Shown one piece after another: positions 30,258-33,131 of a stretch of 36,114 bases of DNA. The stretch lies in NCBI GenBank assembly GCA_018992565.1, contig JACVGW010000001.1:1-36114 (forward strand), in the 5' to 3' direction. A program made the position numbers and the translations under genes. The notes under the pieces were generated by a model. It made no database searches. It saw only the letters and a list, made by a program, of their open reading frames with translations, and was not told the DNA's origin. Every line of letters starts with the position of its first letter. Positions within the stretch are counted from its first letter, which is position 1. This DNA comes from Theionarchaea archaeon. Lineage in GTDB: Archaea > Methanobacteriota_B > Thermococci > Methanofastidiosales > SZ-28-30.

Positions 30258-30430
30258 CGATTTTGACCTCTCCAATATGGAGGAAAAGACGAGAGACGAG
30301 ATACTGTGTGTTTCCACGGGGTTCACCGGGCCCCCTTTGAGGCAAGAAAGCGGTCCAATATGCCTCGGTTGTGGTGGCATTCTGGTCGTTGAGCCTTTTC
30401 TCACAGTATTTCTCTCCAGAGGTGAGAGAA

Positions 30431-31630
30431 ATGAGTTCCGTTCTAAATGTACTGCAGTGCGTTGATGATCCCTCCTGGATAAGAAGACCAGGAGAAACGC
30501 AGGAGAAAGTTCTTGAGGAAATTGTTCATGAGAATGTGAGTACTCGGTTTGGGAGGGAGTACCTGTTTAGAGAGATCAGAAGTACAGAGGATTTCAGAAA
30601 GTCTGTCCCCTTTTCTATGTACTGCGATGTTGAACCCTACATACAGAGGATGATGTGTGGGGAAAACGATGCTCTGATTACAGAACACACAGCAGCCTGG
30701 ATTGAGTCCGTTGGACTCAATAAGAAGCCAAAACTGATTCCGTACACACAGGATATGGCTGGTGGGTTCAGGGATGCATTTTTGAGGTTGTTTGCTTCCA
30801 GAGCAGAAGACTGGGCATATGTTTCAGGGAATGTGATTGCTGGGCTGGAACACCCACACATGGTAAGGGGAAATCCAGCTGGGGATATACTTGCTCTGGG
30901 AAGCAGTACACTGAAATCTACCCCTGTACTGGGAAGGGTGATCACTCCCCAGTTGCCAGAATCCGAAATTGATTGGAAAAAGAGATGGAAGAGAGCTATT
31001 CAGCAAGTTTCGAGACAGAATGTGATATCTGCCATTGTTGACCCAGTGCTCTTTTTGAAGTTTTTGCGCATGGTTCAGTCGGACAATGAGACAGTTGACA
31101 TTCGTCAATTGTGGCCTGACTTCTCCTTGGTAGTAACGACTGTAAGCGCAAGGCCATTCGAGAATGTGCTCAAGTCCCTCCTGGGCCAAGTGGAGTTCCG
31201 GAGGCTGTACTGCACTGATGAGGTTGTGGTAGGTGTTCAGCTGGATGAGAAAGGTATTGTACCCTTGCTTGACCACTGTTTTCTGGAATTCATCCCGTTG
31301 AACCAGTGGAGAGAGATGGAGCTCGAAGGAGGAACCTACAGGGAATATGACTTCGACATTGAGACAATGGAGACTGCAATTCCCGGGGAAGAATATGTTC
31401 TGGTGATGACTACATCCGGCCTATACCGATATATCCCGGGAGACACAGTTGCCATGGTCGACAATCTACACATAGAGCCCACTGGATTCATTGATGAATG
31501 GGCAGTCCTTCCAGAGACAGAGATAATGCAACAGATCGTACTGCTGAGAGAAGTAGCACGAGACAGTGCTGATTCACACCAGCTGGTAGCTGTGGAGTCT
31601 GAACCCTTGAGGTATCTCTTCAGAATCTGA
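30431..31630 (+). CDS. Divergent, C-terminally short GH3-family (auxin-responsive GH3-like) protein
   Basis: ENVSTRFGREYLFREIRSTEDFRKSVPFSMYCDVEPYIQRMMCGENDALIT... and GLYRYIPGDTVAMVD match the GH3 pattern; start trimmed to 30431 after SD AGGTGAGAGAA. Confidence 0.75.
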   Translation: MSSVLNVLQCVDDPSWIRRPGETQEKVLEEIVHENVSTRFGREYLFREIRSTEDFRKSVPFSMYCDVEPYIQRMMCGENDALITEHTAAWIESVGLNKKPKLIPYTQDMAGGFRDAFLRLFASRAEDWAYVSGNVIAGLEHPHMVRGNPAGDILALGSSTLKSTPVLGRVITPQLPESEIDWKKRWKRAIQQVSRQNVISAIVDPVLFLKFLRMVQSDNETVDIRQLWPDFSLVVTTVSARPFENVLKSLLGQVEFRRLYCTDEVVVGVQLDEKGIVPLLDHCFLEFIPLNQWREMELEGGTYREYDFDIETMETAIPGEEYVLVMTTSGLYRYIPGDTVAMVDNLHIEPTGFIDEWAVLPETEIMQQIVLLREVARDSADSHQLVAVESEPLRYLFRI

Positions 31631-31932
31631 GTCCATCCAACTACAGTGGAAGAACAATGTACGTGCCACAGCGTGCAAGAGAGAACAATACTGTGAGGGA
31701 TATATGGTCTTTCTTATAGATGTGTGCAGTCTATCGTTACAGGATTCTTATTGAGAACCCGGCAATCGGTTCCCACAAAAGTGCTTGTTATTAACTTGGA
31801 TTTTTTAATTCCTCTTAATCTCAAGGATGTTGGAGATGGGTTGCCCACACTTTCTAAGTACTAAGTAATTTACCCTAGAATGCTGGCTGTCTTGTCTTAC
31901 TATATACACTTTCTACAAAGAAAGGGGGAATG

Positions 31933-32006
31933 AAAGAGTGGGATTGAGAACAAGACGAAGGAGGTGAAATCCATGGAAGTGGTAACTTGTTTTCTTCCCA
32001 CTCTTT
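31933..32006 (+). repeat. Hairpin-displayed RBS/start element, copy 1
   Basis: Outer arms AAAGAGTGGG (31933-31942)/CCCACTCTTT (31997-32006); inner arms GAGAACAAG (31946-31954)/CTTGTTTTC (31986-31994); 31-nt loop 31955-31985. Confidence 0.85.
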
Positions 32007-32065
32007 GGAGTTGTTACTCCGCATATTCTTTGTCATGTCCCTTTTTAAACTTTTGCAGTATTTAA
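31973..32065 (+). CDS. Putative mini-ORF 1 (30 aa, MEVVTCFLPTLWSCYSAYSLSCPFLNFCSI)
   Basis: AAGGAGGTGAAATCC then ATG; below the ORF-track length cutoff; shares MEVVTC-LPTL with mini-ORF 2. Confidence 0.35.
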   Translation: MEVVTCFLPTLWSCYSAYSLSCPFLNFCSI

Positions 32066-32131
32066 TACCCGCCACATCATCATTGTTTCTGTAGTTTTTA
32101 CTCGAACCCGCAAAAAGTGCAAAAGTACCTT

Positions 32132-32164
32132 CCAGAAAATAGTCACGAGTATTCTTTTTTCTGG
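32132..32164. repeat. Inverted repeat between the two hairpin copies
   Basis: CCAGAAAA (32132-32139) / TTTTCTGG (32157-32164), 17-nt loop. Confidence 0.55.
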
Positions 32165-32192
32165 GAAAAGTCTGTGAGAAGAAGGATTGAGA

Positions 32193-32262
32193 AGAGTGGG
32201 GATTAAATAAACAAGACGAAGGAGGTGAAATCCATGGAAGTGGTAACTTGTTTACCCACTCT
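32193..32262 (+). repeat. Hairpin-displayed RBS/start element, copy 2
   Basis: Outer arms AGAGTGGG (32193-32200)/CCCACTCT (32255-32262); inner arms TAAACAAG (32208-32215)/CTTGTTTA (32247-32254); 31-nt loop 32216-32246 identical to copy 1. Confidence 0.85.
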
Positions 32263-32275
32263 CCTCAGTGTTTAA
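32234..32275 (+). CDS. Putative mini-ORF 2 (13 aa, MEVVTCLPTLLSV)
   Basis: Same SD and ATG context as mini-ORF 1, located in the copy 2 loop. Confidence 0.3.
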   Translation: MEVVTCLPTLLSV

Positions 32276-32505
32276 CTACAGTTGCATATTGGTGTTACCC
32301 CTTTTTAAGTCTTTGTAACGCTAATATAATCAAATTTTCGAAATTGAAATATCTGACCTATTTTGTGGTTTAAAGTACACATTATTTCACAATCAGATAT
32401 TATACCTGGATCACTCCACCTCAAAGCGATTTATCTGCTCATGACTTGAATATTCGCCTGTACCATCAGAGTTGCTCTTAACCACTATCAGAGACCTGCA
32501 TGTGT

Positions 32506-33036
32506 CTATTCCTGGACAAACTGCCATTCACACCATACATCTCCCGTATGTTCATCGGGAGGACACTTTATGCAGTTGCACATGATATGAGGGTTGATCT
32601 CTCTCGCAAAATTGGAAAGGTAGCTAAATCTCACCTGTTTACACGGGAACTCTGGAAATCCCTTCTTTAATCGGGTTAATTGTGTCCTGCAGTTGAGGAT
32701 CTTCAGAATACCTATACCATTTTCTACGGTAATGATTTTTTCGTGCTGATCAAGGGCCCAGCTCGTGTGGTGCAAAGCATTCATGAGAGTAGTGACAGAA
32801 AAATCTTTCATGTTCAGGATGCCTTTGAGGGCCTTTGCCTCAAGGGTTCCCATGATATTCCACACTTCAGCATCAATTTCTGCCGCGGCCTCTGTGCCAA
32901 ACCGGTTCTCAATACCAAGGAAGTACAACCCATCTACTCTCCAAATATTCCGGTTATTGAACATCATGATCTCGATCAGCTTGTCTTCAGGTAATGCTTC
33001 CAGCATGTTTCTATCTTCGTCACTGACGTATGACAT
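32506..33036 (-). CDS. DUF6125-like cysteine-containing protein
   Basis: LPEDKLIEIMMFNNRNIWRVDGLYFLGIENRFGTEAAAEIDAEVWNIMG... and C-terminal CNCIKCPPDEHTGDVWCEWQF; start trimmed to 33036 with SD GGTGGTGACTCA. Confidence 0.65.
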   Translation of the reverse strand: MSYVSDEDRNMLEALPEDKLIEIMMFNNRNIWRVDGLYFLGIENRFGTEAAAEIDAEVWNIMGTLEAKALKGILNMKDFSVTTLMNALHHTSWALDQHEKIITVENGIGILKILNCRTQLTRLKKGFPEFPCKQVRFSYLSNFAREINPHIMCNCIKCPPDEHTGDVWCEWQFVQE

Positions 33037-33131
33037 TGAGTCACCACCTGTGGCTCCACCCTTCACCATATAAGTGTTGCCCTCTTAGCCTCTCAACCGA
33101 GTCTGAACAGGTCAATTGAAGGGAGTGCACG

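What the first reader, a model, noticed from the sequence alone, without database searches (positions are those of the whole stretch)
31920..32320. Tandem hairpins displaying an identical 31-nt loop with perfect SD and start codon
Two elements 261 nt apart in a long intergenic region share the loop ACGAAGGAGGTGAAATCCATGGAAGTGGTAA with no differences. The flanks diverge but keep two stacked stems. The outer stem is GAGTGGG/CCCACTC (10 bp in copy 1, 8 bp in copy 2). The inner stem is GAGAACAAG/CTTGTTTTC in copy 1 (one G-U) and TAAACAAG/CTTGTTTA in copy 2. At the first inner-stem position outside AACAAG/CTTGTT, copy 1 has G-U where copy 2 has A-U, which fits a plus-strand RNA fold. AAGGAGGTGA is nearly an ideal complement of the conserved 16S 3' end (ATCACCTCCT). 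A TATA-like ACTATATAC at about 31900 would start a transcript near 31929, at the foot of copy 1. I do not recognise this as a known riboswitch or RNA family. Options include hairpin-gated translation of tiny peptides, or an RNA decoy that sequesters 30S subunits or the anti-SD.
Basis: partly seen in the sequence, partly recalled or inferred. Interest (0 to 1): 0.85.

Follow-up and report, generated by a model that had tools for sequence, protein, structure and literature searches.

The report
Paired archaeal RNAs with anti-Shine-Dalgarno loop
Between two genes of an uncultured archaeon lie two small RNA genes, read from the strand opposite to the one first proposed, whose hairpin loops are exactly complementary to a strong ribosome-binding site plus start codon; they look like regulators that block translation of other mRNAs, but nobody has yet seen the RNA or its targets.

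Summary
The repeat is real: 44 identical bases at 31949 and 32210, inside strong two-part hairpins. The genome is a Theionarchaea MAG. A sister species has both copies in synteny. The two longest runs of identity between the genomes over 2.1 kb are 136 and 82 bp, and they are these elements, while neighbouring genes are about 79% identical. A coding explanation fails for copy 1: not one synonymous change.
The strand call was probably wrong. With a BRE/TATA matrix learned from this lineage's own genes, both copies carry a strong promoter on the MINUS strand at exactly the same offset (scores 13.2 and 12.3; nothing reaches 8 on plus). The predicted starts (32020, 32280) fall at the foot of a 5' hairpin and at the edge of the 82-bp identical block. 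The RNA therefore shows UUACCACUUCCAUGGAUUUCACCUCCUU: the complement of a near-ideal SD plus AUG, not an SD. Two further copies in the sister genome keep the loop (one with two changes), with a different outer stem that still pairs.
Best reading: a pair of ~100-nt sRNAs that mask ribosome-binding sites, comparable to loop 2 of Methanosarcina sRNA154. Transcription, targets and function are untested. No homologue was found outside the genus.

The parts
31920..32020 (-). Candidate sRNA gene, copy 1 (predicted start 32020; 3' end inferred near 31920 in a pyrimidine-rich stretch)
   Evidence: 136 bp (31927-32062) identical to the sister genome; start predicted 25 nt from TATA centre; 3' end is inference from T-rich sequence
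32165..32280 (-). Candidate sRNA gene, copy 2 (predicted start 32280; 3' end uncertain)
   Evidence: 82 bp (32199-32280) identical to the sister genome, ending at the predicted start
32041..32056 (-). BRE/TATA promoter of copy 1, GCAAAAGTTTAAAAAG
   Evidence: 13.2 bits on matrix learned from 226 upstream regions of this lineage; 9.7e-5 of positions score as high
32301..32316 (-). BRE/TATA promoter of copy 2, ACAAAGACTTAAAAAG
   Evidence: 12.3 bits, same offset (50 nt) from the hairpin foot as copy 1
31933..32006 (-). Copy 1 hairpin: outer stem 31933-31943/31996-32006, inner stem 31946-31954/31986-31994 (minus strand: one A.C mismatch in inner stem)
31955..31985 (-). Copy 1 loop, RNA 5'-UUACCACUUCCAUGGAUUUCACCUCCUUCGU
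   Evidence: identical in both copies and both genomes
32188..32267 (-). Copy 2 hairpin: outer stem 32188-32200/32255-32267, inner stem 32208-32215/32247-32254, 7-nt bulge between
32216..32246 (-). Copy 2 loop, same sequence
32007..32020 (-). Small 5' hairpin GGAGUAACAACUCC at the predicted 5' end of copy 1
30371..31630 (+). Left neighbour (convergent), GH3-family protein
   Evidence: Pfam PF03321 4.8e-26
32506..33069 (-). Right neighbour, DUF6125 protein
   Evidence: Pfam PF19620 2.6e-37

Best explanation
The feature is a tandem pair of small non-coding RNA genes on the minus strand, each about 100 nt with its own BRE/TATA promoter. Each RNA folds into a long two-part hairpin holding out a 31-nt loop, 5'-UUACCACUUCCAUGGAUUUCACCUCCUUCGU. 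The loop is the exact complement of a strong translation start (AAGGAGGUGA, 5 nt, AUG, three codons). The likely action is base pairing of CACCUCC...CAU with the SD and start codon of target mRNAs, which blocks the 30S subunit. By complementarity the best targets are mRNAs with extended SD GGAGGUGAAA, mostly secreted proteins here. Shown: sequence, structure prediction, conservation, promoter match, complementarity. Inferred: transcription, ends, pairing in the cell, repression, targets.
For: Promoter matrix learned here gives 13.2 and 12.3 bits on minus at the same 50-nt offset for both copies, above the median (8.7) of real gene upstreams; no plus-strand hit of 8 or more in the whole intergenic region. 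Between the paralogs the hairpin and this promoter block are what is kept (D1, D2). The longest identical runs between the genomes are 136 and 82 bp, next 27; copy 2's run stops at the predicted start 32280. Copies 3 and 4 in the sister genome keep loop and inner stem (copy 4 with two loop changes), while the outer stem is a different sequence (GAUCUGG/CCAGAUC) that still pairs. The loop's complement scores as a start site in the top 4.6% of 373 gene starts and above 99.85% of random ATGs. Duplex energy with gene starts beats all 100 full shuffles on mean and top ten, and all (mean) or 98 of 100 (top ten) shuffles that keep the anti-SD part. Twenty of 24 genes with a perfect extended SD have a hydrophobic N-terminus, against 59-80 of 373.
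Against: No transcript data. No single mRNA matches the whole 28-nt loop: besides the elements themselves, none in either genome within 3 mismatches over 21 nt, so strict conservation of the whole loop is not explained by one known target; both genomes are about 90% complete. Loop complementarity to start sites is the same fact seen from either strand and does not choose between them. Copies 3 and 4 lack a close minus-strand promoter (copy 4's best is 148 nt away; copy 3 is cut by the contig end) and have weak plus-strand ones. The U-rich block downstream on plus could be a terminator. Minus-strand copy 1 has an A.C mismatch in the inner stem.
Confidence: 0.55

Rival explanations
1. One reading: a plus-strand RNA shows an SD and AUG in a hairpin loop, gating tiny peptides (MEVVTCFLPTLW..., MEVVTCLPTLLSV) or acting as a decoy for 30S subunits.
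For: The loop is a very good start site; plus folds slightly better because of G-U pairs; copies 3 and 4 have weak plus-strand TATA-like sites upstream.
Against: No plus promoter of 8 bits or more near copies 1 and 2, and the proposed TATA is not conserved. The peptides differ after residue 6 and end at unrelated places. Copy 1's 30 codons show no synonymous change, so coding is not the constraint.
Confidence: 0.15
2. A minus-strand RNA whose loop is a protein-binding or loop-loop (kissing) module rather than an mRNA antisense: UCCAUGGA is an 8-nt palindrome, so copies could dimerise, and CACCUCC mimics the 16S 3' tail recognised by ribosome-maturation factors.
For: UCCAUGGA is intact in all copies including the mutated copy 4. 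Self-duplex -13.2 kcal/mol. The 16S end of this genome, GATCACCTCCAATTCCATGGACTC, shares TCACCTCC and TTCCATGGA with the loop, in swapped order.
Against: The loop has GGAUUUCACC against 16S AGAUCACC, so the exact 16S motif is broken. One 16S only; the sharing may be chance.
Confidence: 0.2
3. A DNA-level site (recombination, protein-binding or repeat element) with no RNA role.
For: Two to four copies per genome, perfect loop identity.
Against: Outer stem kept by pairing but not by sequence; promoters at fixed offset; both copies at conserved synteny, no mobile gene among the neighbours tested.
Confidence: 0.1

Closest known systems
Methanosarcina mazei sRNA154 (loop 2) and sRNA41 / sRNA162
   Same: Archaeal intergenic sRNAs; sRNA154 loop 2 has an anti-RBS sequence that masks the glnA2 ribosome-binding site (review PMC5867862); sRNA162 masks a ribosome-binding site through a single-stranded linker and is confined to close relatives (PMC3510493).
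   Different: No Rfam match here; a single hairpin with one 31-nt loop covering SD, spacer, AUG and three codons; tandem pair; different lineage. Sequence homology to these sRNAs was not tested directly.
Staphylococcus aureus RNAIII and Rsa sRNAs with UCCC loop motifs
   Same: Accessible C-rich motifs in hairpin loops that pair with SD sequences (PMC3861533).
   Different: Bacterial, shorter motif; no homology known.
16S rRNA 3' end (anti-SD tail)
   Same: Shares UCACCUCC.
   Different: A 2-nt insertion breaks the rest of the tail; not an rRNA fragment by Rfam.

Membership tests
Any Rfam family | Score at or above gathering threshold | tested here: not met
   Whole window 0 matches; element region best is IMES-5 at 18 bits against 96.1
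Trans-acting RBS-masking sRNA (functional class) | Own promoter in an intergenic region | tested here: met
   Minus BRE/TATA sequence for copies 1 and 2; promoter activity not tested
Trans-acting RBS-masking sRNA (functional class) | Accessible region complementary to ribosome-binding sites | tested here: met
   CACCUCC mean unpaired probability 0.73; better than shuffles against gene starts
Trans-acting RBS-masking sRNA (functional class) | A specific target with extended pairing beyond the SD | tested here: inconclusive
   No near-perfect target; candidates with up to 12-nt SD pairing, mainly secreted proteins
Trans-acting RBS-masking sRNA (functional class) | Expressed as a discrete short RNA and changes target translation | not testable with these tools
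   No transcriptome or cultured strain available here
Plus-strand leader peptide / start-site decoy | Conserved promoter upstream on plus | tested here: not met
   Best plus score 0.8 within 200 nt of copy 1, not conserved
Plus-strand leader peptide / start-site decoy | Conserved peptide with synonymous substitutions | tested here: not met
   Zero substitutions of any kind in copy 1; peptides differ between copies

The most novel reading that the evidence does not exclude
A lineage-specific archaeal RNA pair that imitates the anti-SD of the ribosome plus the complement of AUG, and so acts as a general antisense to the strongest start sites, setting output of the secreted-protein genes as a group.
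Probability: 0.2. Interest if true: 0.75.

Novelty: new variant of a known kind. Interest (0 to 1): 0.55.

Why it matters
Few archaeal sRNAs have a known mechanism. This one carries its likely mechanism in its sequence, a loop complementary to a complete translation start, and comes with clean predictions (start sites, loop, candidate targets) that one RNA-seq set or one reporter assay could test. It also shows that a plausible structural find can be read on the wrong strand.

Tried and rejected
Rfam, gathering and relaxed: nothing. Wider homologues: exact 28-mer in the GTDB species genomes finds only the sister species; a covariance model over 115 class genomes gives only weak chance-like matches outside the genus; IMG/VR patterns find two ordinary phage gene starts or nothing; plasmids none. 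Full-length target mRNA: none; the C101 near match lies inside an open reading frame. G-U wobble as a strand test: evenly split, dropped. tRNA promoters as training set: too few, replaced by protein-gene upstreams. Small ORF on minus (MDFTSFVLF...): not conserved between copies, seen by eye. The covariance model has only the inner 6 pairs, because the outer stems did not align.

Full report
Observation. The repeat and its stems are as described. Copy 1 loop 31955-31985, copy 2 loop 32216-32246; 44 identical bases; folds beat all 200 shuffles on both strands. The window lies in a 2.8-Mb, 88% complete genome. The 28-mer occurs elsewhere in the GTDB species genomes only in Theionarchaea archaeon SZ_20-22.3, the same genus.

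Conservation. In the sister genome both copies are in the same place between the same genes. Over 31000-33100 the longest identical runs are 136 bp (31927-32062), 82 bp (32199-32280), then 27. Flanking coding DNA is about 79% identical and the left intergenic part is nearly unalignable. Constraint is thus far above that on the neighbouring proteins. A coding reason is unlikely for copy 1, because its 30 plus-strand codons show no synonymous change.

More copies. The sister genome has two more: copy 3 at a contig end and copy 4 with two loop changes. Their surroundings are an 86.6% identical 1-kb duplication. They keep AACAAG/CTTGTT and the loop, but the outer stem is GAUCUGG/CCAGAUC in place of GAGUGGG/CCCACUC, with other internal-loop sizes. 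Three stem positions thus differ on both sides and still pair. This is few independent events, but it supports a structure. No homologue was found beyond the genus.

Strand. A 16-position BRE/TATA matrix was learned by expectation-maximisation from 226 upstream regions, starting from the general archaeal consensus. It gives GCAAAAGTTTAAAAAG (13.2) and ACAAAGACTTAAAAAG (12.3) on minus, each 50 nt before the hairpin foot; about 1e-4 of positions score this high. In the intergenic region no plus-strand site reaches 8 bits; one other minus site at 31713 reaches 8.8. Twenty-five nt below the TATA centre lie 32020, the first base of GGAGUAACAACUCC, and 32280, the last base of the 82-bp identical run. 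In copy 2 the spacer between TATA and start has diverged between species while both ends are kept, as expected of a promoter. The plus reading would need the same block to be a terminator, which is possible but does not explain the BRE. Wobble pairs do not settle it. Copies 3 and 4 leave some doubt: weak plus sites, and a minus site only 148 nt off.

What the RNA would show. Read on minus, the loop is UUACCACUUCCAUGGAUUUCACCUCCUUCGU. Its complement is a better start site than 95% of 373 local gene starts (start choice there was itself SD-guided). It pairs with gene starts better than shuffles, also when the anti-SD part is held fixed. The anti-SD is mostly unpaired in the predicted fold. No full-length target exists in the assembled part. 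Genes with extended SD GGAGGTGA, the natural partners, are mainly secreted: 20 of 24 against 59-80 of 373 by hydrophobicity. That may be a property of strong SDs and not of this RNA.

Mechanism. Most likely a twin sRNA that masks ribosome-binding sites. Steps shown: structure prediction, conservation, promoter sequence, complementarity. Steps inferred: transcription, pairing in the cell, repression, targets. Rivals: plus-strand display of a start site, a kissing or protein-binding loop, a DNA site.

Known relatives. It works like loop 2 of sRNA154 and like UCCC-loop sRNAs of Gram-positive bacteria (PMC5867862, PMC3510493, PMC3861533). It is not shown to be a member of any named family. I call it a new variant of a known kind.

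Noticed in passing
L102 (G000:C47, about 5.6-8.6 kb), also L124 (C33) and L141/L142 (C119): Several tiny ORFs of 24-30 aa, M(K/R)KMEPRVEDYLDATCVASTGG..., repeated and several with a perfect SD; look like a peptide (RiPP-like) precursor array.
   Followed up: partly
G000 and G001, loci L093-L146: Genes with perfect extended SD GGAGGTGA are mostly secreted proteins (20 of 24; Fisher p about 1e-9 to 6e-12).
   Followed up: partly
L086 (16S of G000, C127:58292-59760): The 16S end and trailer GATCACCTCCAATTCCATGGACTC share TCACCTCC and TTCCATGGA with the element loop, in swapped order; cause unknown.
   Followed up: no
window 32064-32170 and 32320-32400: Intergenic stretches next to the promoters are also rather conserved (TAGTTTTTACTC; AATCAAATTTTCG...GACCTATTTT), possibly regulator sites.
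   Followed up: no
L009:702-1748 and L084:9961-11035: Copies 3 and 4 lie in an 86.6% identical 1-kb duplication that carries an HTH protein gene, broken in the copy 4 locus.
   Followed up: partly
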